DNA from: Emticicia agri
Lineage (GTDB): Bacteria > Bacteroidota > Bacteroidia > Cytophagales > Spirosomataceae
Length of the DNA: 64,000 nt
Assembly: GCF_004168285.1 (NCBI RefSeq)
Contig: NZ_SEWF01000025.1
Span: 1 to 64,000, forward strand
Direction: 5' to 3'
Part shown: positions 26,390-49,181 of the stretch, in pieces
How positions within the stretch are numbered: the first letter of the stretch is position 1
How the letters are laid out: each line of letters starts with the position of its first letter
The notes under the pieces: generated by a model
Database searches by the model: none
The model's input: the letters and a program-made list of their open reading frames with translations, nothing else
What the model was told of the DNA's origin: nothing
Position numbers and translations under genes: made by a program

Positions 26390-26791
26390 TTAATGAATTT
26401 CAAGTATATCCCGGAGAGCACGGTTTTTACGGCGTGAAAGGCTGAATATTTCACCGTTGTCAAGAATAATTTTGTTATTATCGAAGCTGTAATTCCTGAT
26501 AAATACGCGATTGATGATGATTTTTTTGTTGATTCTGATAAAATTATCGGAGTCAAGTTTATCATTTAACCTTTTGATGGTTGTAGTAGAAATGATATTT
26601 TCTTTCTGGCAGGTAAAAATGGTAGTATAGTTAATATCAGCTTGTAGGTATCGGATATTATCTATCAAAACCTGTACTTTTTTAGTTACGTATAGGGTTT
26701 TCATCGTATAAAAGATATGGTTTGCATCATACAAATTTTTACTTTTATACAAGGTTTTCAAATAAGCAAGTTGTGTAATTTTCCTACTCAT
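26390..26791 (-). CDS. Stand-alone LytTR family DNA-binding protein
   Basis: 133 residues from the ATG at 26791, or 104 from 26704 (MKTLYVTKK), which begins right at the domain. The LytTR fold covers most of the protein: DNIRYLQADINYTTIF, the DNA-contacting region FIRINKKIIINRVFIRNY and the end LDNGEIFSLSRRKNRALRDIL. It has no receiver domain. Located between a LuxR-type response regulator and the GCX surface protein on the same strand, it may regulate the latter. LytTR proteins usually bind direct repeats, so it is not an obvious match for the palindromic sites at 35-48 kb. Confidence 0.85.
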   Translation of the reverse strand: MSRKITQLAYLKTLYKSKNLYDANHIFYTMKTLYVTKKVQVLIDNIRYLQADINYTTIFTCQKENIISTTTIKRLNDKLDSDNFIRINKKIIINRVFIRNYSFDNNKIILDNGEIFSLSRRKNRALRDILEIH

Positions 26792-26881: not shown

Positions 26882-27496
26882 TTATTTATTCCCTTTCCAG
26901 AACCAGCGCATCATTTCTTCGGTTCTGTGGAATCCTAATTTTTTTCGGGCATTGTCAATGTGTTTCCGCACCGTTTTTTCAGAAATAGATATCTGGTCTG
27001 AAATGAGCTTATTAGAAATACCGCTGATACGATAGCTCAGAATTTTGTTTTCCTGTTTCGATAAAGAGTTATTGAAATAAATATCTGTATCGATACTGTC
27101 TCTGATATCTTCGCTGATGGCTTTCTTATTTTGCAGCACTCGCTGAATAGCTTTCATAAGAACACCTTCTGGTTCAATTTTCAGAACATATCCATTGATA
27201 CTGGGCAGTATATCTTTCACAAAAAAGAATCTTTCTTCCTGCGTATAAATTATAATTTTCAATAGCGGGTATTTAAGCCTCAGATTCTTGATAAAAGTCT
27301 CATAGCTGACACTCCTGAACCAGCAGTCGGTAATCAGAATATCTATCTTGTACTGAATTATTTTAGCTTCAATTTCATTGACATTTTGCGTAACTGCTAC
27401 AACTTTTAAGTTTTGTTCAGTCTTAAACTCTACTATTACACCATTAATGATAGCAGGATAGTCGTCAGCTACTAAAACATTTAGTTGATTGCTCAT
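26882..27496 (-). CDS. NarL/FixJ-family response regulator
   Basis: 204 residues. The receiver domain (1-125) has the acidic pair DD (10-11... in VLVADDYPAII), phosphoacceptor Asp in ILITDCWF and a switch Thr in IIIYTQEE. The LuxR-type helix-turn-helix follows at about 140-200 (LSKQENKILSYRISGISNKLISDQISISEKTVRKHIDNARKKLGF). It has no adjacent histidine kinase. Its own terminator separates it from the LytTR gene, so the two are probably regulated separately. Confidence 0.9.
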   Translation of the reverse strand: MSNQLNVLVADDYPAIINGVIVEFKTEQNLKVVAVTQNVNEIEAKIIQYKIDILITDCWFRSVSYETFIKNLRLKYPLLKIIIYTQEERFFFVKDILPSINGYVLKIEPEGVLMKAIQRVLQNKKAISEDIRDSIDTDIYFNNSLSKQENKILSYRISGISNKLISDQISISEKTVRKHIDNARKKLGFHRTEEMMRWFWKGNK

Positions 27497-35746: not shown

Positions 35747-35797
35747 AATATCACGGCAAACCGTGATTGATTCTTGTTTCTTTTCATGGCACATTTG
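35747..35797 (+). promoter_or_regulatory. Palindromic operator and promoter P1 of the fibre regulon
   Basis: A 24-bp block (35747-35770), identical in all four sites, contains ATCACGG-N4-CCGTGAT (35750-35767). The last T begins a TTG (35767-35769), and exactly 20 nt later comes a CACATTTG box (35790-35797), fitting a Bacteroidota -33/-7 promoter with variation at the first T of TAnnTTTG. A regulator bound here would touch the -33 element. Confidence 0.8.
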
Positions 35798-35810
35798 CAT
35801 AAAAATGTCC

Positions 35811-36671
35811 ATGAAGAAATTTGTCCTATTACTTATCATCTTCATTCCGCTTATTAGTCTTGCGCAATCGGGTATAATACTCCCTAATAGTATCGACTTA
35901 CCAAAAGTAACTGCTTTAGCTACTTGCGGTATTACCGAAAAAGGAAAAATGGTTTATCGTATCACTGACAACAAAGCTTATTATTGCAATGGTACAGCCT
36001 GGCAGGAAATGACAGGTGGTGGTTTTAATTTGCCTTATTCAGGTACAGGTACTAATACTGATGTACCGCTATTCAGAATAATTAATAATACAGGTACAGC
36101 CATCTGGGCCGAAGGTGATAACGGGTATGGAATATATGCCCAAAGCAATAATACGGGTTTAAGAGGTGTAAGTATAGATAGATATGCTGTACATGGTACC
36201 AGTACATATGACATTGCAATACTGGGAGTATCTTCATTATCTCATGGAGTATTCGGGACCTCCAATGGTGTTAACGGTTATGGCATCTATGGCACAGGAA
36301 TTAATGGTCGGGCAGGTTATTTTGATGGAAATCTGAAAGTTGCAAATGATTTAATAGTTAATGAAGACAAAGGGATTATTCAAAATTCAAGTAGTACTCA
36401 ACTAAAACATTATAGCCGTAAAGTAACTTTTAACCATACCATTGCTCCTTTTTCTACACTTATTTCGGATGACATCCCGATAGCTACTTTTTCGGCAAAA
36501 CCTGTGGTATATATTGGTGATATTGAAAATCAATTGAATGATTATTATAAGATTATACTCTCTATCGTATCGGTAGATGAAAACTCTATTAGAATCAGGC
36601 TATACAATTCAAGCAATACAGAAAGTACTTTTACAGCTACATGGAATATAATAGCTGTTGGCCCTAAATAG
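35811..36671 (+). CDS. Exported fibre-like protein with GVxGxS repeats and lectin-like C-terminus (1)
   Basis: The start MKKFVLLL at 35811 is chosen by alignment to the 47973 gene; an ATG two codons upstream (35805) is equally in frame. About 286 residues: signal peptide (ISLAQ), an N-terminal module with two conserved Cys (ATC..EKGKMV...NKAYYCNGTAWQEMTGGGF), then five 10-residue GVxGxS-type repeats (about 115-170), a junction with GYFDGN and DKGIIQNSS, and a C-terminal beta-domain (PVVYIGDIEN..YYKIILSIVSV..IRIRLYN..TWNIIAVGPK) resembling H-type lectins. The lectin match is inferred from pattern, not from a search. Confidence 0.75.
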   Translation: MKKFVLLLIIFIPLISLAQSGIILPNSIDLPKVTALATCGITEKGKMVYRITDNKAYYCNGTAWQEMTGGGFNLPYSGTGTNTDVPLFRIINNTGTAIWAEGDNGYGIYAQSNNTGLRGVSIDRYAVHGTSTYDIAILGVSSLSHGVFGTSNGVNGYGIYGTGINGRAGYFDGNLKVANDLIVNEDKGIIQNSSSTQLKHYSRKVTFNHTIAPFSTLISDDIPIATFSAKPVVYIGDIENQLNDYYKIILSIVSVDENSIRIRLYNSSNTESTFTATWNIIAVGPK

Positions 36672-36696
36672 GCCGAAAATTGTATCCTGAACTCAA

Positions 36697-36747
36697 AATA
36701 TCACGGCAAACCGTGATTGATTTCGGTTGCTTTTCATGAGACATTTG
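36697..36747 (+). promoter_or_regulatory. Palindromic operator and promoter P2 of the fibre regulon
   Basis: Same 24-bp block (36697-36720), TTG at 36717-36719 and, after exactly 20 nt, GACATTTG at 36740-36747. About 60 bp around it are nearly identical to P1, including the start codons, as expected from tandem duplication. Confidence 0.8.
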
Positions 36748-36760
36748 TAAAAAAATGTCC

Positions 36761-37960
36761 ATGAAGAAATTTATCCTACTATATATCACAGCTCTTCCTT
36801 TGATAAGTCTGGCACAATCGGGTGTAATGCTTCCTAATAGTATCGACTTACCAAAAGTAACTTCCTTAGCCACTTGTACTAATCCCGAAAAGGGCAGAAT
36901 GGTGTTTAATACAACCGACAACAAAGCCTACTACTGTAATGGTACCACCTGGCAGGAAATGACTGGCGGAGGTTTTTCAATCCCCTACTCAGCTACACAA
37001 AATTCTAACTCAAGCCTTTTGCGAATCGTTAATGAGGGTAATGGAAGGGCTATTTCAGGCGAGTCGATGGGCACTTCTTTGGCTATTGGTGTGCAGGCAA
37101 TTACGGGTAATACCAATCCTGACTTCCCTACGTATGCATTATTTGCCCAGAATTACAGTACTAACGAAAAAGGAGCAGGCGTATATGCCCGACACGATGG
37201 TACAGGTATAGGAGTCTGGGGTGCATCGGTAGGAGGTGCTGGTGTAAAAGGTGAGGCATTTCCGGTAGGTTTGGGTGGTACAGGTAATGGGGTAGGGGTA
37301 TGGGCTGAAAGCACTTCAGGTTCAGCCTTATATGCCAAAAGTACCAGTGGAACGGGTGCCAATGCTATCAGTACAAGCGGGTACGGCGTAAGAGGCCGAA
37401 GCGAAAGTAATGTAGGTGTCAGAGGAGAATCACTTGAGAACTATGGCGTACATGGTCTCTCAACATCAGGTTATGGGGTGCTTGGTTCTTCACAACAACA
37501 GGTAGGAGTATTGGGTCAAAGTAATGGTAGTCATGGTGTATATGGAAATGCTAACAATACTACAGGATACGGCGTTTTTGGAATCGGTACCAATGGCAGG
37601 GCTGGTTATTTTGCAGGCAATGTGATTGTTTCTAACGAATTATTGGTAAGTACCAATAAAGGCCTCCTTCAGAATACAAGTAGCACCCAACTAAAATATG
37701 ATGATGGTAAGGTAGTCTTTGGGGATACGCTGGATGCCTTTTCTACTTCAATTTCACCAGTAATTTATCTTTCCACTTATCCTTCAAACCCTGTAGTATA
37801 TATTGCTAATGTCGAAAATACTACAGGCGCTTATTATAAAGTTATTGTTTCTGTTGTAGGGGTAACTACCAATTCTTTCCGGCTCAGATTTTACAATGCC
37901 AGTAACGCAACAATTGAATTTACCGGCACCTGGAATTTCGTAGTTATCGGCCCTAAGTAG
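36761..37960 (+). CDS. Exported fibre-like protein with expanded repeats and lectin-like C-terminus (2)
   Basis: About 399 residues (start MKKFILLY; alternative ATG 36755). Same plan as its upstream paralog: signal peptide, two-Cys module (CTNPEKGRMVF..NKAYYCNGTTWQEMT), then a longer repeat zone (about 140-283) in nearly perfect 10-residue register: GVRGRSESNV, GVRGESLENY, GVHGLSTSGY, GVLGSSQQQV, GVLGQSNGSH, GVYGNANNTT. The junction NKGLLQNTSSTQLK follows and the end is a lectin-like domain (NPVVYIANVENTTGAYYKV..FRLRFYN..WNFVVIGPK). The repeat number exceeds the paralogs, suggesting expansion by recombination. Probably a trimeric beta-helical stalk. Confidence 0.75.
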   Translation: MKKFILLYITALPLISLAQSGVMLPNSIDLPKVTSLATCTNPEKGRMVFNTTDNKAYYCNGTTWQEMTGGGFSIPYSATQNSNSSLLRIVNEGNGRAISGESMGTSLAIGVQAITGNTNPDFPTYALFAQNYSTNEKGAGVYARHDGTGIGVWGASVGGAGVKGEAFPVGLGGTGNGVGVWAESTSGSALYAKSTSGTGANAISTSGYGVRGRSESNVGVRGESLENYGVHGLSTSGYGVLGSSQQQVGVLGQSNGSHGVYGNANNTTGYGVFGIGTNGRAGYFAGNVIVSNELLVSTNKGLLQNTSSTQLKYDDGKVVFGDTLDAFSTSISPVIYLSTYPSNPVVYIANVENTTGAYYKVIVSVVGVTTNSFRLRFYNASNATIEFTGTWNFVVIGPK

Positions 37961-37983
37961 CCTATAAATTTACAATAACCCCA

Positions 37984-38034
37984 AATATCACGGCAAACCG
38001 TGATTGATTCTGGTTTATTTTCATTGGAGATTTG
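37984..38034 (+). promoter_or_regulatory. Palindromic operator and promoter P3 of the fibre regulon
   Basis: Identical 24-bp block (37984-38007) with TTG at 38004-38006 and GAGATTTG at 38027-38034, again 20 nt apart. It drives the 38049 gene and probably the 39191 gene, 2 nt downstream of it. Confidence 0.8.
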
Positions 38035-38048
38035 CAATAAAAATGTCC

Positions 38049-39188
38049 ATGAAACAACTATTCACTCTACTTTGCTACAGTTTCTGTAGCTTGCCCCTCA
38101 TTGGGCAAAGTGTCACTATCTCGCCAACATCAACATCAGCCATTATTCAGTCAAGCAGTACGACCAGTGGCTTTCTACCTCCCCGTATGTCAAAATCCCA
38201 ACGAGAGGCCATTGTCAATCCCGTAAATGGTTTGCTGGTTTTTCAGAATACAAGCAATGTTGATAGCCCACCTGGTTACTATTGGTACAATGGTGCTTAC
38301 TGGCGCCGCCTGGTTGAAGCCAATGAGTTGAGTTGGAATGTCAACAACAATAATCAATCAAGTGCAGTTTCGGGCAATGTGGGTATTGGTACAGCCGCCC
38401 CCGGCGATAAGCTACATATACGCACTTCCACTTCATCAGCAGGCATTACTTTTGAGGGTGTCAACCCTACTTTCCAATTCAGACAACAAGGGGCAGCGAC
38501 AGCGGCTTATACCGATAAAGGGTTTATCCAATTGGCTGATAACGACCTGAGAATCGGTGTCAATAGCAGCAATACAACCGGAAAGTTCATTATCCGTACA
38601 CATGGAGCCGACCAGATAGAGGTTGATGGAAGTGGCGGTGGAGGTAGAATGTTTTTTAATTATAATGGTACTAATGTAGGGTCTATTTCTCCTTCCTCCT
38701 CAGGCAATCTTCATATATCTACCCCTGGTACCTCTTCTGATTTTGTTGGTTTGAATGGTGCTTTATTTGCCACTTATGGTGGACGAGTAGGTATTGGCAT
38801 CTCAGACCCTCAGGAAAGATTAGATGTACAAGGCAATCTGAAACTATTGGGTAGCATTGCTATGGCAGGCGAAATCACCAAGACTAATGTGGCAGAAGGA
38901 AGTTTTCTGCCGCTCTGTTATGGCAGAGTGGGTTTTAGTGGCGATCGTCAATCGGGGTCAAGCAACTTTACTTCTGATAATCCATCAACAGGCAGATACA
39001 AAATCTATAATGTCAGCATTAATTATAACTCTACCATTATCGTAACCCTTAATAGTAGCAATGCACAGATAATAGCCTCAGCAGGTTGTGGCGATGGCGA
39101 CTGTACCGTTTACCTGAAAGATGGTTTTAGTAACGAAAATCGATTTGACCCCATTAATCAGGCTTTTTACTTTGTCATTTACAGATAA
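38049..39188 (+). CDS. Exported fibre-like protein with NVGIG motifs, different C-terminal domain
   Basis: About 379 residues (MKQLFTLL; alternative ATG 38043). Signal peptide (PLIGQ), then the common Bacteroidota head FLPPRMSKSQREAIVNPVNGLLVFQNTSN..GYYWYNGAYWRRL. Tail-fibre-type motifs follow: GNVGIGTAAPGDKLHIRT and GRVGIGISDPQERLDVQGNL. The C-terminal ~100 residues (NPSTGRYKIYNVSINYNSTIIVTLN..CGDGDCTVYLKDGF..FVIYR) differ from the lectin-like ends of its neighbours. It is the first gene of a two-gene unit with the 39191 paralog under P3, so the two products may form one appendage. Confidence 0.7.
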   Translation: MKQLFTLLCYSFCSLPLIGQSVTISPTSTSAIIQSSSTTSGFLPPRMSKSQREAIVNPVNGLLVFQNTSNVDSPPGYYWYNGAYWRRLVEANELSWNVNNNNQSSAVSGNVGIGTAAPGDKLHIRTSTSSAGITFEGVNPTFQFRQQGAATAAYTDKGFIQLADNDLRIGVNSSNTTGKFIIRTHGADQIEVDGSGGGGRMFFNYNGTNVGSISPSSSGNLHISTPGTSSDFVGLNGALFATYGGRVGIGISDPQERLDVQGNLKLLGSIAMAGEITKTNVAEGSFLPLCYGRVGFSGDRQSGSSNFTSDNPSTGRYKIYNVSINYNSTIIVTLNSSNAQIIASAGCGDGDCTVYLKDGFSNENRFDPINQAFYFVIYR

Positions 39189-39190
39189 CC

Positions 39191-40087
39191 ATGAAAAAAC
39201 TAATCCTTCTACTCTGTTTTACTGCTCCATTGTGGAGTATAGCGCAATCGGCTACAATTTTGCCTAATAGCCTTAGCGTGCCAAAGGTTTCTTCAATGCC
39301 TACCTGCAATACCACCGAAAAAGGCACACAGGTATTAAATACTACCGACAATAAAATGTACTACTGCAATGGCACAAACTGGCAGGAAATGACAGGCGGA
39401 GGCTTTACCTTGCCTTATAGTGGCACAGTAAATGGTAATTCGACACTCTTATATTTGGAAAATACAGGTATTGGAAGAGTCATTCATGCTAAAAGCACAG
39501 ATTTTGGTGCGTTAAGAGGTGAAAGTGAGACAAATATTGGCGTTCATGGATCAAGTACATCGTATTATGGAGTCAATGGTACGAGCATCTCAAGCGTTGG
39601 AGTTCGTGGTTCAAGCGCTTCAGGAACTGGAGTCTATGGCATAAGTACAACAGGCTATGGAGGCTATTTTTCTGCTTCCGGCAATCAACCTACACTTTAT
39701 GTTTATACTTCTCAAGGTGAAGCAGCCGATTTCAGAGGAAATGTCAAAATAAGAGATGAGCTGATTGTTGATGATAATAAAGGGATTGTAAGAAGTAGTA
39801 ATAGTGAACAACAAAAAATAGTAAAAGGAACCATTCATTTTCTTGCAAGTAATTTAGCAGTGGGAGCCTACGTAGAGGGCACCTATAATTACGAGAATTT
39901 TGGTGACACACCAATAGTAACAGTTGGACAAATCCAGAATGTCAATTCTACAGGCGAATGGTATAAAGTTATGGTCATTCCTATGAATGTCACTTCAGCA
40001 CTCTGTACTTTCAGATTAGTGAATGTAGGCAACAATGCTATTACCTTCAATGCTTACTGGAGCATTTTAATTGTGGGACCTGAATGA
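39191..40087 (+). CDS. Exported fibre-like protein with GVxGxS repeats and lectin-like C-terminus (3)
   Basis: 298 residues; the start MKKLILLL lies 2 nt after the previous stop, so it is co-transcribed. Signal peptide (WSIAQ), two-Cys module (PTCNTTEKGTQV..NKMYYCNGTNWQEMTGGGF), five GVxGxS repeats (GVHGSSTSYY, GVNGTSISSV, GVRGSSASGT, GVYGISTTGY), junction DNKGIVRSSNSEQQK and a lectin-like end (TPIVTVGQIQNVN..WYKVMVIPMNVTS..FRLVNVG..YWSILIVGPE). It has no palindrome of its own. Confidence 0.75.
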   Translation: MKKLILLLCFTAPLWSIAQSATILPNSLSVPKVSSMPTCNTTEKGTQVLNTTDNKMYYCNGTNWQEMTGGGFTLPYSGTVNGNSTLLYLENTGIGRVIHAKSTDFGALRGESETNIGVHGSSTSYYGVNGTSISSVGVRGSSASGTGVYGISTTGYGGYFSASGNQPTLYVYTSQGEAADFRGNVKIRDELIVDDNKGIVRSSNSEQQKIVKGTIHFLASNLAVGAYVEGTYNYENFGDTPIVTVGQIQNVNSTGEWYKVMVIPMNVTSALCTFRLVNVGNNAITFNAYWSILIVGPE

Positions 40088-40105
40088 AACTCTAATCGCA
40101 TCATA

Positions 40106-40492
40106 TTACTCAATCCCTTCAACCAACAGTGCGTGTCCCTGCTTGTCATAGTAGCTAATGGTCATTTTGTTGGTATCAAACGCCCATTTTTCGATACCAC
40201 TGTCGGCTAAGCCTTGCGACATTTCAAAATAGTCGGTTTTACCCTGCTCATGCAGACTCAGATGTTTTAGCATGCTCTTGCGACTGCTTTTGTCAGCAAT
40301 CGTGAATATCTTATGCGTCGGAGGAGAAACTATTTTCTGATTATGCTTTCCAAAATATTCTGAATGTCCGTCAGCGATGAACGAGTAGTAGTTCTCTACA
40401 CCAATGGCATTCAATGCCTTTAAATATTCAGGCAACGATGCCTGTTTACCAAGGCGTTTATGTATATCGTTTATCTGGTCAAGTGTGAACAT
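40106..40492 (-). CDS. DUF1398 family protein
   Basis: 128 residues, cytoplasmic. DUF1398 (YbcV-like) features: LPEYLKALNAIGVENYYSFIADGHSEYFG, then HKIFTIADKSSRKSMLKHLSLHEQGKTDYFEMSQGLADSGIEKWAFDTNKMTISYYDKQGHALLVE. Function unknown. It starts 3 nt after the beta-propeller lipoprotein gene, so it is probably co-transcribed with it. Confidence 0.85.
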   Translation of the reverse strand: MFTLDQINDIHKRLGKQASLPEYLKALNAIGVENYYSFIADGHSEYFGKHNQKIVSPPTHKIFTIADKSSRKSMLKHLSLHEQGKTDYFEMSQGLADSGIEKWAFDTNKMTISYYDKQGHALLVEGIE

Positions 40493-40495
40493 GGT

Positions 40496-41419
40496 TTAAT
40501 CAATCTTATACTTCAATAAAACAAGCGATTCCAATTTATTTTTATCTATTATCGCATTGGTACTATCATTAAAATTATCCAATTGTACATTTTTAATAAA
40601 GTAGATAGAATCTCCTGCAATATCAAAAGTAGTCGGCGATTTATAGGTTTTATCAAATAAGATAATTGCCTTTTTACTGGTAATTTCAGTACCATCTTCA
40701 TTCAGATAATATCTGAACACTCCTTCTTCCACTATCCCTATTAAACTATTTTGATAAAACTTCATGGCATCAATTCCGGAATAATCTTTATCAGGCTGAT
40801 TGAGGATTTTTTTCGTCAATAAATCCACCACTCTGATTCCTTTTGCGGAAGCTAAATAAAGCTTCGTATGATCATCCGAAATAGCTATTCCGTTAGAATT
40901 TGCTACTTCTTCTGTATCCAGATAAACTTCCAGTTTACTATTTGGTCTCTGTATCTTATAAATCCGATTACTTTCTGAATCTGTGATAAAAATTTCATTA
41001 CGCTTGCTCACAGCCAAATCATTCAGATAAGCATAAGGCGGAATACTGATTTTGTATTGCGCAATTAATTGTTGGGTTTTTATATTTAATAATAATAAAA
41101 CAGAGGTATTATTCTGTTTTGGCAAGCCATTACTCAAGGCATATAAAGTATCGCCTTTGATAGTCATTCCGAATCCGGCTTGATATTCATACTGATTACT
41201 TGCAATAAAATCCTTGGCATTATTGCCATCAACTCTGGCTCTTACAATCTTGTTTTTTCTAAGGCTACTTAAATAGAATCTTCCTGATTTTGCATCAACG
41301 GCAATGCCCTCGGGTATTAAGTCTTTTTCAAAGGTTAGATTTACTGTTTCAGATATTGGATTATTGCAGCTTGTTAAGGCCAAGGTTGTAAGCAATAGTA
41401 GGGTTAGTTTTGGTAACAT
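40496..41419 (-). CDS. Lipoprotein SMP-30/gluconolactonase-like beta-propeller
   Basis: 307 residues with lipobox LALTSCN. A six-bladed propeller is suggested by repeated strands: IPEGIAVDAKSGRFYLSSLRKNKIVR, YLNDLAVSKRNEIFITDSESNRIYKI and NSNGIAISDDHTKLYLASAKGIRVVDL. It fits SMP-30/strictosidine synthase-like lactonases, but a full set of metal ligands was not confirmed. Periplasmic or outer-membrane bound. First gene of a two-gene unit with DUF1398. Confidence 0.75.
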   Translation of the reverse strand: MLPKLTLLLLTTLALTSCNNPISETVNLTFEKDLIPEGIAVDAKSGRFYLSSLRKNKIVRARVDGNNAKDFIASNQYEYQAGFGMTIKGDTLYALSNGLPKQNNTSVLLLLNIKTQQLIAQYKISIPPYAYLNDLAVSKRNEIFITDSESNRIYKIQRPNSKLEVYLDTEEVANSNGIAISDDHTKLYLASAKGIRVVDLLTKKILNQPDKDYSGIDAMKFYQNSLIGIVEEGVFRYYLNEDGTEITSKKAIILFDKTYKSPTTFDIAGDSIYFIKNVQLDNFNDSTNAIIDKNKLESLVLLKYKID

Positions 41420-41561
41420 TTGATGGTAAAGGTTATAACTACAGTTTATAGAATATATAGCAGTGAGATGTTTAGCTTATCATGATGGCTACAGTTTTCC
41501 GGCTTCGAGAGAGATTGTCTATATATATTTTTGCAAATACTTTTATTGGCTGAATGTGCTT

Positions 41562-42932
41562 TTATTTGTCTCTTAAATATTTATCAATTAGCAATATAGC
41601 ATCTTTGTCATTTGGATGTGGGGCAGAACTTGTTATTAGGACTCCATTTTTGTCAAGCAGGGCATAACGTGGAAACCCCTGGTCAATGCCAAATTTTTCA
41701 TCAAAGTATTTTTCATCTTCTTTTTCGGCTTTTACGTGCATGCCCGTTAATTTTTTATCCTTAATGGCTTTTAACCATTTTTCTTTTGTGTCATAAAAGT
41801 CAATAAAAAGAAACGTCACATCTTTACCTTTATATTTTTGTTGCAGCTTTGAGGAGTTAGGCATCTGAGTTAAACAAGCTTTACACCAACTACCCCAAAA
41901 ATCAATATAAACTACCTTGCCTCTGGTAGATTTAATGTTAAATTGCTTTCCTGATGCGTCTTTCAAAACAAAGTCGGGAACTGAAAAAGCGTTTTTATTT
42001 TTCTTGTCCCACTTCTTTTGTATTACATCAATGTATTTAGATTTGGGGAACTCTTTTTTATAGTTTTTAAATTGCAATTCCACGAATTGCGGCAAATTAA
42101 AATAGTTAATCAGGAAAATTAAATTTTCACCCTTTATCCTTTCTTTTGTTGAAGGGTGGTTAATTAATAATGAGTCTATAATTTCGTACTCTGTTCGGCT
42201 ATATTTTTCTCTATCCGGATAATCATTGAATAGATTAAGCCGTTTTGTTGCGGTATAGCCAATATAATCTACCAGAGAATTTCTATAAAAATCGCTTAAA
42301 CAGTTATCGTCTAAAAGCTCAAATTTATTCCAGAAATCATAGTAATCTGATGGAATTTCTTCCTTTTTAATCTTTCTTTGTCCAAAGATATTCTGTAATA
42401 TATATTGGTTTTTATTAAAGTTTGAAAAATGTGTTATTTCTCCTTTGCAGTAAGAAGAAAACATTTTTGAAATCTGGTTAGCATTAAAACTGATTTTGTA
42501 TAAATCCCATCTTTTTTGTTCTATGCTGTCAAGGTGGGCTATTTGTTGCAGGGGAGCAAATTTGTCAACAGTTACGGTTGGCGAAACAGCCCTTGGTGTC
42601 ATCATTCCAGCTTGGAATAAAAAATTATTCTGCTTAGCCGCTTGTCCCGAAAAAAGAAATTCATTTCTATTTGTTTCCTCTATTTTTAAAGTTGTATTAG
42701 GTATTACCCAAAGCCTGAGAAATTGATTTGAAATAAAAAGTATGACAGGTTGTTCGGTATCTAATTGAAATGAGGAAGAGAAATCCCCGCTTACATCTGT
42801 CTTACCTGTCCCTAAAATTTCTCCTTGAAAATCATTTAAGGAAGACTGATTAAAAACTATTCTAAAGTCCGTTGATGGCCATGACTTAAAACTACCTTTT
42901 ATGATTGTCTGCCCGGAAGCATTTATGAACAA
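41562..42932 (-). CDS. TlpA-like thioredoxin-fold protein with DUF4369 domain, 5' frame disrupted
   Basis: From the first possible start in frame (TTG at 42932) the product is 456 residues: a DUF4369-like beta region (about 8-110), a helical middle and a C-terminal thioredoxin domain (about 315-455) with VYIDFWGSWCKACLTQMPNSSKL (CKAC, 350-353). No signal peptide is in this frame. However, an ATG at 42972 in another frame encodes MSKFILLFLTSSL, and one base away it would join LLFINASGQ in this frame to make a complete signal peptide. So either the gene carries a one-base frameshift or the sequence has an error. Family members work in periplasmic thiol redox. Confidence 0.75.
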   Translation of the reverse strand: MFINASGQTIIKGSFKSWPSTDFRIVFNQSSLNDFQGEILGTGKTDVSGDFSSSFQLDTEQPVILFISNQFLRLWVIPNTTLKIEETNRNEFLFSGQAAKQNNFLFQAGMMTPRAVSPTVTVDKFAPLQQIAHLDSIEQKRWDLYKISFNANQISKMFSSYCKGEITHFSNFNKNQYILQNIFGQRKIKKEEIPSDYYDFWNKFELLDDNCLSDFYRNSLVDYIGYTATKRLNLFNDYPDREKYSRTEYEIIDSLLINHPSTKERIKGENLIFLINYFNLPQFVELQFKNYKKEFPKSKYIDVIQKKWDKKNKNAFSVPDFVLKDASGKQFNIKSTRGKVVYIDFWGSWCKACLTQMPNSSKLQQKYKGKDVTFLFIDFYDTKEKWLKAIKDKKLTGMHVKAEKEDEKYFDEKFGIDQGFPRYALLDKNGVLITSSAPHPNDKDAILLIDKYLRDK

Positions 42933-43190
42933 TAAGGCTGCTTGTCAGAAATAATAAAATGAATTTAGACATTTTGTAGAAGTTTGAAGATGTAACATTG
43001 CTGCCAATTCTTTAATAGCTGTAAACTTGTGGATATATTGCAAAAATAAAAAATCGAATCAGTTAAAAAATGTTAATCACATATAGAAACACTATTGCAG
43101 ATTTCTAACTGTGGCACAGCTAATGCACTTTTAACTTGCCTCTTTCCTATTATTTTGCTTATTTAGGGCTTCTTAAACCTCAACAAACTT

Positions 43191-45128
43191 ATGCGAGCCC
43201 TATCAGGCGTTTTACTACTCATTGCTTCGGCTGTTTTTGCCCAACAAAATGTACCTCAACGAACAGCCATCGAGACCAACACTCGTACCATCCGGCAGGG
43301 TGTACCCATGACCAATTCAATCCGTAAAGCTTTTGCCGCAGGTACCCGTGATTTTTCGGGCAAACCTGGCCAGAATTACTGGCAGCTGGAAGCTGATTAT
43401 ACTATTCAGGCCAGTATTGACCCCACAACACAAACTATTACTGGTACTGAAAAGATTCTGGTGCATAACAACAGCAAAGAGGACTTAAAAAATCTGGTGC
43501 TACGCCTCGACCACAACATTTTCCGTCCTGAAGTACCCCGTGGTTTTTCAACCCCTGCCGAAGCCACCGAAGGTATGGTGGTTACAAGTATCAAAGTAGC
43601 CGGAGCAGAGATTGAACAAAAAACTATCAGAGGCTTGAACCGCACTATTGCCACTGTTCCATTAAAAGACTTTATCAAGGCCGGAACAAAAGCTGAGGTA
43701 GAAATAGCCTGGCATACCAAACTCCCGGGCGGCCCGAATGGTGTAGGGCATCGGATGACACAACGTTTTGATGATAAATTGTTTCAGCCTACGCAATGGT
43801 TTCCACGACTGGCTAAATATGACGACCTGAGAGGTTGGGAAACCAGCCCCTATTTAGGGCCATCGGAATTTTATAATAATTTCGGCAGGTTTGATGTGCG
43901 TATCACTGTGCCAGGTGGGTGGCTGGTAAGCGGAACAGGTGTATTGCAGAACCCTGAGCAGGTACTGAATGAAACTACCAGAAAACGATTAACCACTGTA
44001 CTGAACAGTAATGATGAAGTAACGATTGTAAGTGCAGAAGAAGCCGGAAATGCCACAGTTGCCGGAGACAAACTTACGTATCATTTTGTAGCCGACAAAG
44101 TAAACGATTTTGCCTGGGCTACCGCCGGAAAATTTATCTGGAAAGCCACAAGAGCCACTATTCCGGGCAAAGGGGCAATACCTATTTATATGTTCTATCT
44201 GCCCGAAAGAGCCAGATTTTTTGAGAAAGCAGGGGCTATTACCCGCCATGCCTTAGAATTTTATTCTGCCTTGTGGACTCCCTACCCTTTTCCGCAGCTA
44301 ACCTTGCAAGATGGCCCCAGTGCCGGAATGGAGTATCCGATGGTGATTAACTCTAATCAGGGAGCAGCCGACCATGAGACGGGGCACCAGTGGTGGCCGA
44401 TGGTGGTGGGTAATAACGAAACCCGCTATGGCTGGATGGATGAAGGCTTTAACCAGTATATGAATATTCTTTCGGCGGCTGATAGCAAAGGCATACCTTA
44501 TAAATTGGATGGTCTTGGACAAAGCTATGGCAAACAAAGTGGCGATGAGGACGAAGCCCCGATGATGTGGAGTGCTAACGATGCCGCAAGTGGCTATCGT
44601 TTCCAGACATACGGTAAAACGCCTCTGATGCTGTCTATGTTAGGGGGTATAGTTGGCGATGAAGCTGTTATGAAAGCCATGAAAGAATATGCTAAGGTAT
44701 GGAGTTTTAAACACCCTTCGCCCTGGGATTATATGTATTTCATGAATAATGCCCTCGGACAAAATCTTGACTGGTTCTGGTACTACTGGTTATTTACCAC
44801 CGAATCGGTTAATGGTTCTATCAAAGAGGTAAAAACCAATAAAGATAAAACCATTGTAACGGTACACCAGGCAGGCGAAATGCCTTCTCCGGTAGTACTG
44901 AAAGTAGAGTTTGAAGCTGAAGGCCCAGCTATTAAAACCTTACCAAACACCAAAATGCTTGATGCTAATACGGCTGTGGTAACCTGGCCTGTTTCAGTAT
45001 GGTTTGGTGGTAGCCGCACATTTGAGGCTGAAATGAATTTCGGCAAACGTAAAATCAAACAAATTACTTTAGACCCGAACGGCCGCTTCCCGGATAACGA
45101 TACAAAAGATAATGTATGGCCGAGGTAA
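43191..45128 (+). CDS. M1 family zinc metallopeptidase (aminopeptidase)
   Basis: 645 residues with signal peptide (AVFAQ). N-terminal beta-saddle domain (about 60-260), then the gluzincin catalytic domain: SAGMEYPMV (379-385, GxMEN equivalent) and HETGHQWWP (His395, Glu396, His399) with zinc ligand Glu418 (WMDEGFNQY). Thus the HExxH-18x-E signature is complete. It would cleave N-terminal residues from peptides in the periplasm or outside. It appears to be transcribed alone; a hairpin follows the gene. Confidence 0.92.
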   Translation: MRALSGVLLLIASAVFAQQNVPQRTAIETNTRTIRQGVPMTNSIRKAFAAGTRDFSGKPGQNYWQLEADYTIQASIDPTTQTITGTEKILVHNNSKEDLKNLVLRLDHNIFRPEVPRGFSTPAEATEGMVVTSIKVAGAEIEQKTIRGLNRTIATVPLKDFIKAGTKAEVEIAWHTKLPGGPNGVGHRMTQRFDDKLFQPTQWFPRLAKYDDLRGWETSPYLGPSEFYNNFGRFDVRITVPGGWLVSGTGVLQNPEQVLNETTRKRLTTVLNSNDEVTIVSAEEAGNATVAGDKLTYHFVADKVNDFAWATAGKFIWKATRATIPGKGAIPIYMFYLPERARFFEKAGAITRHALEFYSALWTPYPFPQLTLQDGPSAGMEYPMVINSNQGAADHETGHQWWPMVVGNNETRYGWMDEGFNQYMNILSAADSKGIPYKLDGLGQSYGKQSGDEDEAPMMWSANDAASGYRFQTYGKTPLMLSMLGGIVGDEAVMKAMKEYAKVWSFKHPSPWDYMYFMNNALGQNLDWFWYYWLFTTESVNGSIKEVKTNKDKTIVTVHQAGEMPSPVVLKVEFEAEGPAIKTLPNTKMLDANTAVVTWPVSVWFGGSRTFEAEMNFGKRKIKQITLDPNGRFPDNDTKDNVWPR

Positions 45129-45141
45129 AACTCAATGCGCC

Positions 45142-45185
45142 ACCGTGCCACCCCCTTTTGCGAACGAGTATAGGGGTGGCACGGT
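45142..45185. repeat. Intergenic hairpin after the M1 peptidase gene
   Basis: Perfect 13-bp inverted repeat (ACCGTGCCACCCC at 45142-45154, complement at 45173-45185) with an 18-nt loop and no T-tract. It may be a weak terminator or a palindromic repeat element between convergent genes. Confidence 0.6.
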
Positions 45186-45239
45186 TAATGCACTAAGTGG
45201 CTCATATAATCCACATAACACCTGCGAAACATAATACTA

Positions 45240-46007
45240 TCACCCCTTCCCCTTCCTCCTCTTAAAGTCCCAAAAACCTCCCATCAGAAACAAACACATC
45301 AAAACAAGTGCATTCCTTAATAAAATCAGATGAAGATGCTCGAAATTGGGGAAAGCAATCATCATCAGGTAAGAATACGGATACCACTCTTTTGGAATTG
45401 TTTTATATTCAAAAGTCATCATAATTCCGGCAAACCATAAGACAAAACCTAAAGCGAGCGGAAGAATAAAATTCCTGAACCGAAGACTCATCCAGAATTG
45501 TATCGAACTGATAGCCAGACTGCAGACAAATGTTTTTGATAGTAGTGCCACAAGATGCTGCCAGTCAAGGTATTTATGGAACAAGTCAAGTTTTGCATCG
45601 ATCGCATTGAGCAACAATGCTGCTAAAAATAAAAACGTTACATTTAATAAGAGGAATAAAAGAATCAGGAATTGCAGGTTCAGAAATTTGCTGATAAAAA
45701 CAGTTAATTCAGATTGAGGAGAACTGAATACCTGCTTCCATGTATGGTTACGATACTCTATCTGCGCTGTTAAGGTAGCAATCAGTATCATATAAAGTGG
45801 TAATATCATACCAATCATCATCTGCAGGCTGATTTTGAAATAAATCTGCCACGGGTCGGCATATAATCTTGCTACAGAATCGCTTGTCGTAAGCATCTCT
45901 AACAACTCCATGAATGGAACAAAAAAAGCACCAAAAAAAGTCAGGTAAAAAGCTGAAGTTCGTTTGGTTTTCAATAATTCAGATCGTAAGGTAATAGCTA
46001 AATTCAT
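45240..46007 (-). CDS. ABC transporter permease, ABC-2 type (second of a tandem pair)
   Basis: 255 residues with six membrane helices. It aligns over its full length with its neighbour at 46067: both start M-LTITLRSELLKTKRTSA-YLT-FGA and contain IEYRNHTWKQVFSSPQSE, ISSIQFWMSLRFRNFILPL and FDFKRRKGKG. These belong to the bacteriocin or lantibiotic protection (BcrB/NatB-like) permease group. Tandem duplication gives a heterodimeric exporter with the ATPase at 46837. Substrate unknown. Confidence 0.85.
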   Translation of the reverse strand: MNLAITLRSELLKTKRTSAFYLTFFGAFFVPFMELLEMLTTSDSVARLYADPWQIYFKISLQMMIGMILPLYMILIATLTAQIEYRNHTWKQVFSSPQSELTVFISKFLNLQFLILLFLLLNVTFLFLAALLLNAIDAKLDLFHKYLDWQHLVALLSKTFVCSLAISSIQFWMSLRFRNFILPLALGFVLWFAGIMMTFEYKTIPKEWYPYSYLMMIAFPNFEHLHLILLRNALVLMCLFLMGGFWDFKRRKGKG

Positions 46008-46066
46008 AATAGTTTTTTATCAGGTTAATAAATAATTTTGGAAGATGGCTTATTGGGGTTCAACAG

Positions 46067-46840
46067 TTAATCGTTACCCTTTCCCTTTCTACGTTTGAAA
46101 TCAAAAAAGCCTATTAGCAAAAACACACCTGTGAAAAGAAGCGCATTGCGTAATAGCGTAACGTGCAAATGTGCATAGTCTGGAAAAACAAGCATCATCA
46201 GGTAAGAATACGGGAACCATTCTTTTGATAGGGTTTTATATTCAAATACAAACATGAGTCCTACAAACCATAAGGTAATACCTATGGCCAATGGCAGAAT
46301 AAAATTCCTGAATCTCAGACTCATCCAGAATTGTATCGAACTGATGGTCGTGCTTAAAAGAAGTGTTTTTCCCAGCGTTTCAATCAACTGTTGCCAGTCG
46401 AAAGATTGCTGTAATAAACCAAGCTGTGGATCAACCACATTAACCAATAATATTACCACAAATAACAATGCGGCATTTAGTAGCAGGAATGAAACGATCA
46501 GCAATTGCAGGCTCAGGAATTTACCGAGAAATACGTTAAATTCAGATTGAGGAGAACTGAATACCTGTTTCCAGGTATTGTTACGGTATTCAATCTGAGT
46601 CAGCAAGGTAGTCATGAGTATCATATAAAATGGTAATAGCAAGCCCATCACTATATGCAGACCATTTTTATAGTAAAACTCCCAGGGATAAGTATACATC
46701 TTTTCCAGGGGTTGGCTTATGGTGAGCAGTTCATCTAATTTTATTGACGGAACTATCAATGCCCCAAAAATAGTCAGATAAAGTGCTGAAGTACGTTTGG
46801 TTTTAAGCAGTTCAGATCTTAGGGTAATAGTTAAGCTCAT
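46067..46840 (-). CDS. ABC transporter permease, ABC-2 type (first of a tandem pair)
   Basis: 257 residues, six helices and the same conserved blocks as the 45240 paralog, with changes mostly in extracellular loops. Its start overlaps the end of the ATPase gene by 4 nt (ATGA type), so ATPase and both permeases form one operon. Such three-gene sets often protect against cationic peptides or cyclic antibiotics or export a small molecule; nothing here fixes the substrate. Confidence 0.85.
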   Translation of the reverse strand: MSLTITLRSELLKTKRTSALYLTIFGALIVPSIKLDELLTISQPLEKMYTYPWEFYYKNGLHIVMGLLLPFYMILMTTLLTQIEYRNNTWKQVFSSPQSEFNVFLGKFLSLQLLIVSFLLLNAALLFVVILLVNVVDPQLGLLQQSFDWQQLIETLGKTLLLSTTISSIQFWMSLRFRNFILPLAIGITLWFVGLMFVFEYKTLSKEWFPYSYLMMLVFPDYAHLHVTLLRNALLFTGVFLLIGFFDFKRRKGKGND

Positions 46841-47751
46841 GAGAGGTTGGTTGTCATATCAATAAATAATTCTTCAAGATTATTTCCTTTGGGTTGCAAA
46901 AGATATACATCAATATTATTTTTCATCAGCTTCCTGTTAATTTCAGCTATCTGTTGAAGACTATTATAAGATAAAGAAAAAATCTCGTCGCTTAATTCAG
47001 GGCTGTATTCATGCAAAATCTTTATGGCTTCCGGATTATCTGATGTATGCAGGTTAAGTTTCGCTTTTTTCTGTTGAAAACCATGTAGCTCCTGCAAAGT
47101 ACCCTGAAATAGCATTTTACCTTTAAAAATGATACCGATATGCGTTACCATCTTTTCAACTTCTGCCAGAATATGGCTTGAGATAATAATGGTAATGCCC
47201 AATTCCTGATTCAGTTTTTTAATCAGTCCACGTAGCTCAATAATTCCATTGGGGTCAAGACCATTGGTAGGTTCATCTAAAATCAGTAATTCGGGGTTTG
47301 GCAGAAGTGCCAGAGCAATAGCTAATCTTTGTTTCATACCTAAAGAAAAGTGCCTGGCTTTCTTTCTCCCGGTATCACTTAAATCAACCAAGGTTAATAC
47401 TTCTTCAACCCTGTTTTTATCTACTCCATACACATCCCGGTACACATTAAGGTTCTCACGGGCGGTCAGATGCCCGTAAAAAGAGGGACTTTCAATTAAG
47501 GTTCCTACCTTTTTCAGAATATTAATCCTATCGTCTTTTAATTCTTTGCCAAATAAGGCAATGCTTCCTTTTTGCAGATTCCGCAACCCTAAAAGCAAAC
47601 TTAATGTAGTGGTTTTACCGGAGCCATTCGGGCCGATAAATCCATAAATACTGCCTTTTTCCACCTGCAAATTAATGTCAAACAATGTCTGAACATTTTT
47701 TGAATAATTGTAGCTTAGGTCAGTGGTCTGTAGAATGTAATTGTTTCTCAT
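46837..47751 (-). CDS. ABC transporter ATP-binding protein (BcrA-like)
   Basis: The ATG at 47751 (MRNNYILQT) is chosen; the longer frame contains no conserved residues. About 304 residues: Walker A GPNGSGKTT, Q-loop, signature FSLGMKQRLAIALALL, Walker B ELLILDEPTNGLDP and the H-loop IIISSHILAE. The C-terminal ~90 residues match the BcrA/NatA-type accessory region. It is the energy-coupling subunit for the two downstream permeases. It is divergent from the fibre gene at 47973; the palindromic operator P4 lies in between, so it could affect both. Confidence 0.92.
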   Translation of the reverse strand: MRNNYILQTTDLSYNYSKNVQTLFDINLQVEKGSIYGFIGPNGSGKTTTLSLLLGLRNLQKGSIALFGKELKDDRINILKKVGTLIESPSFYGHLTARENLNVYRDVYGVDKNRVEEVLTLVDLSDTGRKKARHFSLGMKQRLAIALALLPNPELLILDEPTNGLDPNGIIELRGLIKKLNQELGITIIISSHILAEVEKMVTHIGIIFKGKMLFQGTLQELHGFQQKKAKLNLHTSDNPEAIKILHEYSPELSDEIFSLSYNSLQQIAEINRKLMKNNIDVYLLQPKGNNLEELFIDMTTNLS

Positions 47752-47906
47752 AATTTTTGTTTTGGTTGGTGTTATTAAATTCGAAGAATCCGAATGTAGT
47801 ACATAATACTTTGCAAAGCAAGGTATTATGCAGACTATTTGATAAATGGTTGAAATAAAGGGAAGAAAGGAACCGAAATTAGAATGGCAATACATTTAAT
47901 TACCTC

Positions 47907-47957
47907 AATATCACGGCAAACCGTGATTGACATGAATAGAGTATGAGAAGACATTTG
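47907..47957 (+). promoter_or_regulatory. Palindromic operator and promoter P4 of the fibre regulon
   Basis: The same 24-bp block (47907-47930) with TTG at 47927-47929 and GACATTTG at 47950-47957, again 20 nt apart. Beyond the block the sequence differs from P1-P3, so conservation is confined to the functional elements. Confidence 0.8.
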
Positions 47958-47972
47958 TAGAAAAAAACATTC

Positions 47973-49181
47973 ATGAAAATATCTACAAAACTTTACCTGA
48001 GCCTTGCTCTTAGTCTGTCATATACCACAATTTTTGCTCAAAATGCAAAAGTTGTCGACACACCTAATGGTACTGTCATTAGCAATATGGGAGGCACCGA
48101 CACACCATATTCAGCTTCAATTCTGGATATCCGTAGTGCTAATAAAGGTATTTTACTACCTCGCATGAGTACTGCCAACCGCAATGCTATCAGTTCTCCA
48201 CAAGCAGGTTTACTCATCTATAACAATTCTACTAATCAGTTCAATTACCACAATGGTTCCTCATGGCAAGTAGCCTCAATTGGCAATCAATGGGGAGTAA
48301 ATGGGAGCATCCTGCACCATAGTGGACAGGTAGGGATTGGAACAGCGAACATGATAAATGCTAATACCTTTCTGAATGTACGGGGAAATCTGGGTGGTAC
48401 TGGTTTTGAAGGCATGTATATTACTTCCAGTGGTAGCAGAGGCAAACCTTTTTACGGATATTCTGCCAATGATAGCACAACAGCGTATCATTATTATGAT
48501 GGCAGCAATTCAAGATGGAATCTGAATGTAGGAAGTGGTGATAGAATAACCGTTACAAGCACGGGTAATGTAGGTATAGGTATAACTAACCCTATATATA
48601 AATTGCATGTCAATGGCTCTAGCTATCTTAATGGTTATACCGAAGTAAATGGCGATCTGTATGTAAACGGTATTTTTGATGTAGATACAGACGGATATAT
48701 TAACAGAGACGCTATTGTAGGCAGAAATTTAAGCGTAGCAGGAACAAGTTCTTTAATCGGAAATGTAACAACCACCAATAATATTACGGTAGGTAATAAT
48801 GCAACTGTTAATGGGAATGGAGTAGTGGATGGTAATCTTACAGTTAATAATGGCAAAGGAGTAGCTTATAATGCCAGTAATAGCACAAATCTGAGAATAT
48901 ATAAATTTACGACAGCTAACTTTCATGCTGTATTACCAGCTCATGGTTCTGCTGTAACAGCCATTGCATTTAATGGCGGATTTACTTCAACTCCTCATGT
49001 GATGGTAGCTGATATAGCCTCATCGGGAGGAACTGTAGGAGAAATAGACAGAGTAATATTGGTATTAAGCGGTTGCAGTATTTCGGGTGGAACAACTTCT
49101 TGTACTGCCAAAATTGTGAATACTGATAATGCTGCTGTAGATTATAACATTACCTGGAATTGCATCGCTATCGGCTATTAA
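47973..49181 (+). CDS. Exported fibre-like protein with NVGIG motifs and lectin-like C-terminus (4)
   Basis: 402 residues, start MKISTKLYL, signal peptide (TIFAQ). A head module (GILLPRMSTANRNAISSPQAGLLIYNNSTNQFNYHNGSSWQ) is followed by tail-fibre-type motifs (GQVGIGTANM, GNVGIGITNPIYKLHVNGSS) and a run of GN and NGN-rich hexapeptide-like strands (SLIGNVTTTNNITVGNNATVNGNGVVDGNLTVNN). Junction GKGVAYNASNSTNL and end (PHVMVADIAS..DRVILVLSGCS..AKIVNTDNAAVDYNITWNCIAIGY) resemble those of the 35.8-40 kb family. It sits 8 kb away but shares the operator. Confidence 0.72.
   Translation: MKISTKLYLSLALSLSYTTIFAQNAKVVDTPNGTVISNMGGTDTPYSASILDIRSANKGILLPRMSTANRNAISSPQAGLLIYNNSTNQFNYHNGSSWQVASIGNQWGVNGSILHHSGQVGIGTANMINANTFLNVRGNLGGTGFEGMYITSSGSRGKPFYGYSANDSTTAYHYYDGSNSRWNLNVGSGDRITVTSTGNVGIGITNPIYKLHVNGSSYLNGYTEVNGDLYVNGIFDVDTDGYINRDAIVGRNLSVAGTSSLIGNVTTTNNITVGNNATVNGNGVVDGNLTVNNGKGVAYNASNSTNLRIYKFTTANFHAVLPAHGSAVTAIAFNGGFTSTPHVMVADIASSGGTVGEIDRVILVLSGCSISGGTTSCTAKIVNTDNAAVDYNITWNCIAIGY

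What the first reader, a model, noticed from the sequence alone, without database searches (positions are those of the whole stretch)
35747..47957. Four promoters with one identical palindrome-plus-core arrangement define a hidden regulon of surface fibre genes
A 24-bp block containing ATCACGG-N4-CCGTGAT occurs at 35747, 36697, 37984 and 47907, always on the same strand, identical in all four. Its last T starts a TTG, and exactly 20 nt later comes an A-n-A-TTTG box (35790, 36740, 38027, 47950), with the ATG 14-16 nt further. This is the geometry of a Bacteroidota -33/-7 promoter with a dimeric-regulator site fused to the -33 element. Every site precedes a secreted fibre-like protein and no other gene here has it. 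The fourth site is 10 kb from the others and its surroundings differ, so shared ancestry of the region alone does not explain the conservation. The regulator is unknown. Being so close to -33, the site could act in activation or repression.
Basis: partly seen in the sequence, partly recalled or inferred. Interest (0 to 1): 0.88.

Follow-up and report, generated by a model that had tools for sequence, protein, structure and literature searches.

The report
Shared operator of surface-fibre gene promoters
The same mirror-symmetric DNA switch sits at one fixed place in a dozen promoters of this bacterium, mostly in front of genes for exported fibre-like proteins, and comparison with relatives points to a sensor-kinase and response-regulator pair as its reader.

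Summary
Observation confirmed. ATCACGG-N4-CCGTGAT lies without mismatch at 35750, 36700, 37987 and 47910; its last T starts TTG, and nAnnTTTG follows after exactly 20 nt. The genome has 12 such promoters (reversed-pattern control 0): 9 precede secreted fibre-like or C1q-like proteins, 1 a large secreted protein, 2 in tandem a DUF4595-LytTR operon. Between orthologous promoters of three congeners the palindrome arms agree at 280 of 280 positions, the 40 bp upstream at 313 of 800: a selected site, not shared ancestry.

Sites occur in 14 of 222 family genomes. In 11 of these a NarL/FixJ-type response regulator of one of three types (A, B, C; decayed in one genome) is encoded beside a site; two more, including this genome, carry type B elsewhere. 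In two genomes of another genus a homologue of window gene 3 (50% identical) stands, with the palindrome, between regulator B and its kinase. Best candidate for the window: the type B regulator at contig C3:78357-78980, acting near -43.5 like a LuxR-type class II activator. Rival: a stand-alone LytTR protein, present in 6 of 6 site-bearing congeners and 0 of 5 others. Regulon: well supported. Regulator and activation: inference. Closest described system: FimS/FimR of Porphyromonas gingivalis.

The parts
35750..35767 (+). operator palindrome 1
35767..35797 (+). promoter 1: TTG 35767-35769 (-33), 20 nt, CACATTTG 35790-35797 (-7)
   Evidence: promoter function inferred
35805..36671 (+). gene 1, 288 aa secreted fibre-like protein (signal peptide by eye)
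   Evidence: related to genes 2 and 4; no family match
36700..36717 (+). operator palindrome 2
36717..36747 (+). promoter 2: TTG 36717-36719, GACATTTG 36740-36747
   Evidence: promoter function inferred
36755..37960 (+). gene 2, 401 aa secreted fibre-like protein
37987..38004 (+). operator palindrome 3
38004..38034 (+). promoter 3: TTG 38004-38006, GAGATTTG 38027-38034
   Evidence: promoter function inferred
38043..39188 (+). gene 3, 381 aa secreted protein; 50% identical over 379 aa to a protein encoded between a clade-B response regulator and its kinase in two genomes of another genus
39191..40087 (+). gene 4, 298 aa relative of genes 1 and 2; no site of its own, probably in the operon of gene 3
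47910..47927 (+). operator palindrome 4
47927..47957 (+). promoter 4: TTG 47927-47929, GACATTTG 47950-47957
   Evidence: promoter function inferred
47973..49181 (+). gene 5, 402 aa secreted tail-fibre-like protein
   Evidence: PHROG tail fibre match E 1e-7, Bactofilin below cut-off

Best explanation
The 18-bp palindrome is the operator of a dimeric transcription factor, fused to the -33 element of Bacteroidota-type promoters. It defines a regulon of 12 promoters in this genome, 10 in front of secreted (mostly fibre-like) proteins and 2 in tandem in front of a DUF4595-LytTR operon. The factor is most likely a NarL/FixJ-type response regulator (receiver plus GerE/LuxR-type HTH) driven by a TPR sensor histidine kinase; for the window the best candidate is the type B pair on contig C3 (kinase 76341-78350, regulator 78351-79010 on the minus strand). 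The phosphorylated dimer would sit on the palindrome, centred near -43.5, contact RNA polymerase at the -33 region and switch on the fibre genes; the LytTR protein would be a further regulator within the regulon. Shown: sites, fixed spacing, conservation over flanks, gene content, adjacency and co-occurrence. Inferred: binding, identity of the regulator, phosphorylation, activation, surface location.
For: 12 sites against 0 reversed-pattern controls, each with TTG at the palindrome's end and TTTG (10) or TTTA (2) exactly 27 nt on. Arms 280 of 280 identical between orthologous promoters, upstream 40 bp 313 of 800. Sites in 14 of 222 family genomes, reversed control 0 in all 222. Response-regulator types A/B in 12 of 222; 11 genomes in both sets; Fisher p 3e-15 by genome, 2e-5 by genus (genomes are not independent, see against). 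The only A/B genome without a site, G083, has its contig cut off 155 bp before the kinase start. A search without ORF filtering finds a receiver-HTH regulator beside a site in 11 of the 14 genomes: type A in G003, G006, G008, G072, G093, G112; type B in G037, G058, G137; type C in G112 (second locus), G105 and, decayed, G002; G000 and G007 carry type B elsewhere. Type A, B and C proteins have receiver and GerE domains. In G058 and G137 the order is regulator B, site, homologue of window gene 3, kinase; the G000 C3 regulator is 63% and its kinase 39% identical to the G058 pair. Position: with TAnnTTTG at -12 to -5 (PMC9723704, passages) the palindrome covers -52 to -35; LuxR-type activators bind 42.5 nt upstream of the start (PMC7585371, passages).
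Against: No binding or expression data. Profile A3 was built from 11 regulators, 9 chosen because they lie beside a site, so part of the co-occurrence is built in; what was not built in is its absence from 210 other genomes and its presence in G007 and G083. Only the best 13-15 candidates per genome were scored. In this genome and in G007 the type B pair is not next to any site, and no palindrome lies near it. G002 has a site but only a decayed type C regulator. G018 has a 1-mismatch site before a TonB_C protein and no such regulator beside it; it may be chance. Types A, B and C are only 28-41% identical, so one shared operator is not self-evident. In the tree (no support values) one G000 gene not near a site, C11:99615, also falls within A+B. 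LytTR co-occurs better within the genus.
Confidence: 0.6

Rival explanations
1. The reader of the palindrome is the stand-alone LytTR protein (C8:137164-137556 in this genome), which controls its own operon and the fibre genes; the response regulators are neighbours for another reason or act above it.
For: Within the genus an orthologue (55% identity or more, a cut chosen after seeing the list) is in 6 of 6 genomes with sites at up to 1 mismatch and 0 of 5 without (Fisher p 0.002; the response-regulator A/B set gives 5 of 6 and 0 of 5, p 0.015). It lies downstream of a site on the same strand in all 6, 71 nt behind the promoter in G006 and 107 nt in G008. A LytTR gene is also beside the site in G072 and G093, and another 97-aa LytTR gene lies 1-2 kb from the C2:169k-type site in G000, G006 and G007. 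G002 has the LytTR gene but no intact A/B/C regulator beside its site.
Against: LytTR beside a site in 8 of 14 genomes, against 11 of 14 for response regulators; absent from the fetched site loci of G037, G058, G105, G112 and G137. The G072/G093 proteins are only about 30% identical to the genus type, whereas their response regulators are 76-77% identical to that of G006. G035 has a 58% identical LytTR protein (nearer in sequence to the C28 paralogue) and no site. LytTR domains are known (recalled, not from a call) to read direct repeats rather than palindromes. There are 46 LytTR matches in this genome, so nearness by chance is not rare.
Confidence: 0.22
2. Another, unseen dimeric repressor or activator reads the site; both candidates are only regulon members.
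For: Regulator and kinase promoters themselves carry the site in some genomes (G037, G003, G008), which regulon members would too.
Against: No other DNA-binding gene recurs beside the sites in the loci examined; not an exhaustive test.
Confidence: 0.13
3. Not a regulatory site: a mobile or REP-like repeat, a terminator of the upstream gene, or a block copied along with duplicated fibre genes.
For: Sites 1-3 lie 26-28 nt behind a stop codon, and genes 1, 2 and 4 are related.
Against: Site 4 follows no gene end on its strand; no T run follows the window sites; arms identical while upstream flanks are unrelated; unrelated proteins carry it; at up to 1 mismatch no copy lies away from such a promoter in this genome.
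Confidence: 0.05

Closest known systems
FimS/FimR two-component system of Porphyromonas gingivalis (PMC1974823, PMC11053733, PMC5706477; passages)
   Same: Bacteroidota; TPR sensor kinase plus response regulator; the regulator activates surface fibre (fimbria) genes directly (mfa1) and through a cascade whose first gene is a regulator (fimA).
   Different: Targets are fimbriae, not tail-fibre-like proteins; in the passages seen (PMC1974823: no occurrence of 'palindrom' or 'consensus') no palindromic operator is given; sequence kinship of FimR to types A-C was not tested.
LuxR-type class II activator promoters (lux box at 42.5; PMC7585371, passages)
   Same: GerE-type HTH, about 20-bp dyad, centre about 43 nt upstream of the start, next to the upstream promoter element.
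   Different: Receiver domain instead of acyl-homoserine-lactone domain; Bacteroidota -33/-7 promoter; different operator sequence.
NarL/FixJ response regulators of solved structure (VraR, NarL, RcsB, DevR)
   Same: Full-length profile match, best VraR E 9e-42.
   Different: Different operators and signals.
Bacteroidota sigma-A-type promoter TTTG (-33) / TAnnTTTG (-7) (PMC7366714, PMC9723704; passages)
   Same: Box sequences and distance.
   Different: TTG and a 20-nt spacing are invariant here; [quoted passage not shown] johnsoniae.
LytTR-domain regulators (PF04397)
   Same: The rival candidate has the domain (E 7e-16).
   Different: Stand-alone, without receiver; known sites are direct repeats (recalled).

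Membership tests
NarL/FixJ response regulator acting on this site | receiver plus GerE/LuxR-type HTH domains | tested here: met
   types A, B, C: PF00072 and PF00196 above cut-off
NarL/FixJ response regulator acting on this site | partner histidine kinase of HisKA_3 type | tested here: met
   G006, G000, G058 and G112 kinases, with TPR (below the TPR cut-off in G000 at 30.9 of 30.1 bits with no separate stretch, and in G058)
NarL/FixJ response regulator acting on this site | presence tracks presence of the site | tested here: met
   types A/B in 11 of 14 site genomes and 1 of 208 others; type C accounts for G105 and, decayed, G002; partly built in by the choice of profile
NarL/FixJ response regulator acting on this site | binds the palindrome | not testable with these tools
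   needs gel shift or footprint
LytTR regulator acting on this site | presence tracks presence of the site | tested here: inconclusive
   6 of 6 and 0 of 5 within the genus; beside a site in only 2 of 8 site genomes outside it
LytTR regulator acting on this site | direct-repeat binding site (recalled) | tested here: not met
   the site is an inverted repeat; the family's site type is recalled, not from a call
Class II (LuxR-like) activator promoter | dyad centred at about -42 next to the upstream element, fixed spacing | tested here: met
   centre -43.5 if the box is at -12 to -5; spacing identical in 12 of 12; starts themselves not mapped
Class II (LuxR-like) activator promoter | transcription is activated | not testable with these tools
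   needs reporter or RNA-seq
FimS/FimR family | sequence kinship to FimR | not tested
   FimR sequence not compared
Mobile/REP repeat | copies irrespective of promoters | tested here: not met

The most novel reading that the evidence does not exclude
The operator outlives its regulator: one palindrome-plus-promoter module, with some of the same fibre genes, is kept across genera while the regulator encoded beside it is exchanged among three response-regulator types (A, B, C; C decayed in G002) and two LytTR types, so that one fibre regulon is re-wired to different sensors in different lineages.
Probability: 0.35. Interest if true: 0.68.

Novelty: new member of a known kind. Interest (0 to 1): 0.52.

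Why it matters
Bacteroidota carry many kinase/NarL-type pairs and LytTR proteins whose operators and targets are unknown. Here an operator, its exact promoter position, a 12-promoter regulon and two ranked regulator candidates come from sequence alone, and each can be tested in one gel shift. It would tie the little-understood tail-fibre-like secreted proteins of these bacteria to one signalling system, in parallel with fimbria control by FimS/FimR.

Tried and rejected
Rejected: mobile repeat, terminator, duplication hitch-hiking (see rivals). LytTR as sole candidate was my first reading; the family search changed it.

This raised the response-regulator reading slightly (0.58 to 0.60) and the novel case (0.30 to 0.35). 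Distances in G240 and G295 were corrected to 50 and 54 nt.

Led nowhere: upstream dyads of 30 LytTR paralogues - that script did not turn minus-strand loci, so nothing is drawn from it; the same slip was corrected. Order sample: 7 of 390 genomes have a site at up to 1 mismatch, 3 of them outside the family (G378, G295, G240), and 1 genome has a reversed-control hit. In G295 and G240 a perfect palindrome lies 54 and 50 nt before a kinase/NarL-type pair, but the TTG side points away from the kinase, both kinases are of 7TMR-DISM type without TPR, and G378 and G295 share the same stretch; suggestive only. Literature: 9 completed searches; no paper on this motif seen in the listings. Of 173 papers holding both half-strings only 10 were listed, and I opened none of them; absence from print is not claimed.

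Dropped rows: of 32 hits I count the 12 with 0-1 mismatch; 2 with 2 mismatches and 18 with 3 are dropped (reversed control 29 in all, not split by mismatch). Of 22 places, 10 with 2 mismatches are dropped; one search recovers none of these within 2 mismatches. The 2-mismatch sites of G010 and G003 lie within ORFs and are dropped.
Full report
OBSERVATION. The palindrome ATCACGGCAAACCGTGAT is at 35750, 36700, 37987 and 47910, four of four without mismatch and nothing else up to 3 mismatches in the window.

GENOME. The window is contig C25:1-64000 of a 6.65 Mb assembly in 174 contigs. The palindrome alone and palindrome plus promoter give 12 sites with 0-1 mismatch in the promoter pattern; a stricter pattern at up to 2 mismatches gives 12 against 0 for the reversed control. 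Consensus: AT(C/T/A)ACGG-N4-CCGT(G/A)AT, whose last T begins TTG, then A in 11 of 12, with TTTG (10) or TTTA (2) starting 27 nt after that T. Targets: window genes 1, 2, 3 (+4) and 5; a gene-2 relative at C2:169k; a 990-aa secreted protein 284 nt behind the box at C2:205k, with only short ORFs between; a C1q-like protein (below Pfam's cut-off) at C4:75k; a tail-fibre-like protein followed by an M43 protease at C8:133.5k; two tandem sites before a DUF4595 protein and the LytTR protein at C8:136.2-136.3k; an S74 tail-fibre protein at C41; and at C16 a protein 70% identical over 254 aa to the C8 fibre. Thus 9 of 12 sites precede fibre-like or C1q-like proteins, 1 another secreted protein, 2 the DUF4595-LytTR operon. 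Signal peptides were judged by eye. The fibre label rests on family matches for window gene 5, C8 and C41 and on relatedness for the others.

FOOTPRINT. For 8 promoters with counterparts in G006 and/or G007 (20 pairs) identity is: arms 280/280, last two bases of TTG 40/40, -7 box 145/160, loop 62/80, 20-nt spacer 264/400, next 20 nt 278/400, upstream 40 nt 313/800. The site is kept by selection.

WHICH REGULATOR. Within the genus (11 genomes) sites at up to 1 mismatch occur in G000 (12), G007 (9), G006 (7), G002, G003 and G008 (1 each), and a LytTR orthologue in exactly these six, downstream of a site each time. Over the whole held family, 222 genomes, 14 have sites. Looking at the site loci without ORF filtering, a receiver-HTH response regulator is beside a site in 11 of the 14: type A (G003, G006, G008, G072, G093, G112), type B (G037, G058, G137), type C (a second G112 locus; G105; decayed in G002, where kinase fragments remain too). 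G000 and G007 carry type B elsewhere, next to a TPR kinase and without a palindrome nearby. Only G018 has none, and its site is doubtful. A LytTR gene is beside a site in 8 of 14. Types A and B group together in a tree that also takes in one G000 gene not near a site (no support values). Their profile finds 12 of 222 genomes, 11 with sites; the twelfth, G083, is cut off before the kinase. In G058 and G137 the order is regulator B, site, fibre gene, kinase; that fibre protein is 50% identical to window gene 3 over 379 aa, and the G000 C3 regulator is 63% identical to that of G058. This links window gene family, operator and regulator directly.

MECHANISM (inferred). With TAnnTTTG at -12 to -5 (PMC9723704, passages), the palindrome covers -52 to -35, centre -43.5; LuxR-type activators sit at 42.5 (PMC7585371, passages). 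Invariant spacing in 12 of 12 suggests contact with RNA polymerase rather than simple blocking. Implied leaders are 3-11 nt. Sites before regulator or kinase genes (G037, G003, G008) and before the LytTR gene suggest feedback.

COMPARISON. FimS/FimR is the nearest described parallel: TPR sensor kinase, response regulator, activation of surface fibres directly or through a cascade (PMC1974823, PMC11053733, PMC5706477, passages). Kinship to FimR was not tested.

VERDICT. Observation confirmed; a real operator regulon about 0.95; reader: response regulators 0.60, LytTR 0.22, another protein 0.13. A new member of a known kind, of good but not exceptional interest; the exchange of regulators around a kept operator is the boldest reading left open.

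Noticed in passing
L114:4577-4594; variants at the same place in L019 and L113: A second 18-bp palindrome of the same layout, CTACAGG-N4-CCTGTAG, lies just upstream of the operator of the LytTR operon (exact only in G007; 3 overlapping loci of 282; none in the window). A second regulator may read it.
   Followed up: partly
L115:1553-2984 (G002): Decayed kinase and response-regulator (58% identical to the G112 C39 regulator over 134 aa) directly before the only site of G002.
   Followed up: partly
L139:6248-11542 (G112 C39): Two sites bracket an operon with a TPR kinase and a type C regulator; the second site leads into a 559-aa protein and a 2048-aa protein with a weak TANFOR match.
   Followed up: partly
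window:26390-27496 (-): A stand-alone LytTR gene (26390-26791) next to a 204-aa receiver-type regulator (26882-27496, 24% identical to the C3 regulator), 8 kb from the first site; no site beside them.
   Followed up: no
L017:5710-5995: 284 nt with only short ORFs between the promoter box and the 990-aa secreted protein (HZS_alpha match, C-terminal GCX_COOH domain); a gap of similar length is seen in G006 and G007.
   Followed up: no
L280 (G378) and L281 (G295): Genomes placed in different families share the same stretch with an identical palindrome; one may hold a misplaced contig.
   Followed up: no
L018:4383-6904 (-): Three tandem C1q-like paralogues at C4:75k, of which only the last in the direction of transcription has the operator.
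   Followed up: no
whole genome G000: 46 matches to the LytTR query at E<=0.001, an unusually large set of unknown function.
   Followed up: no
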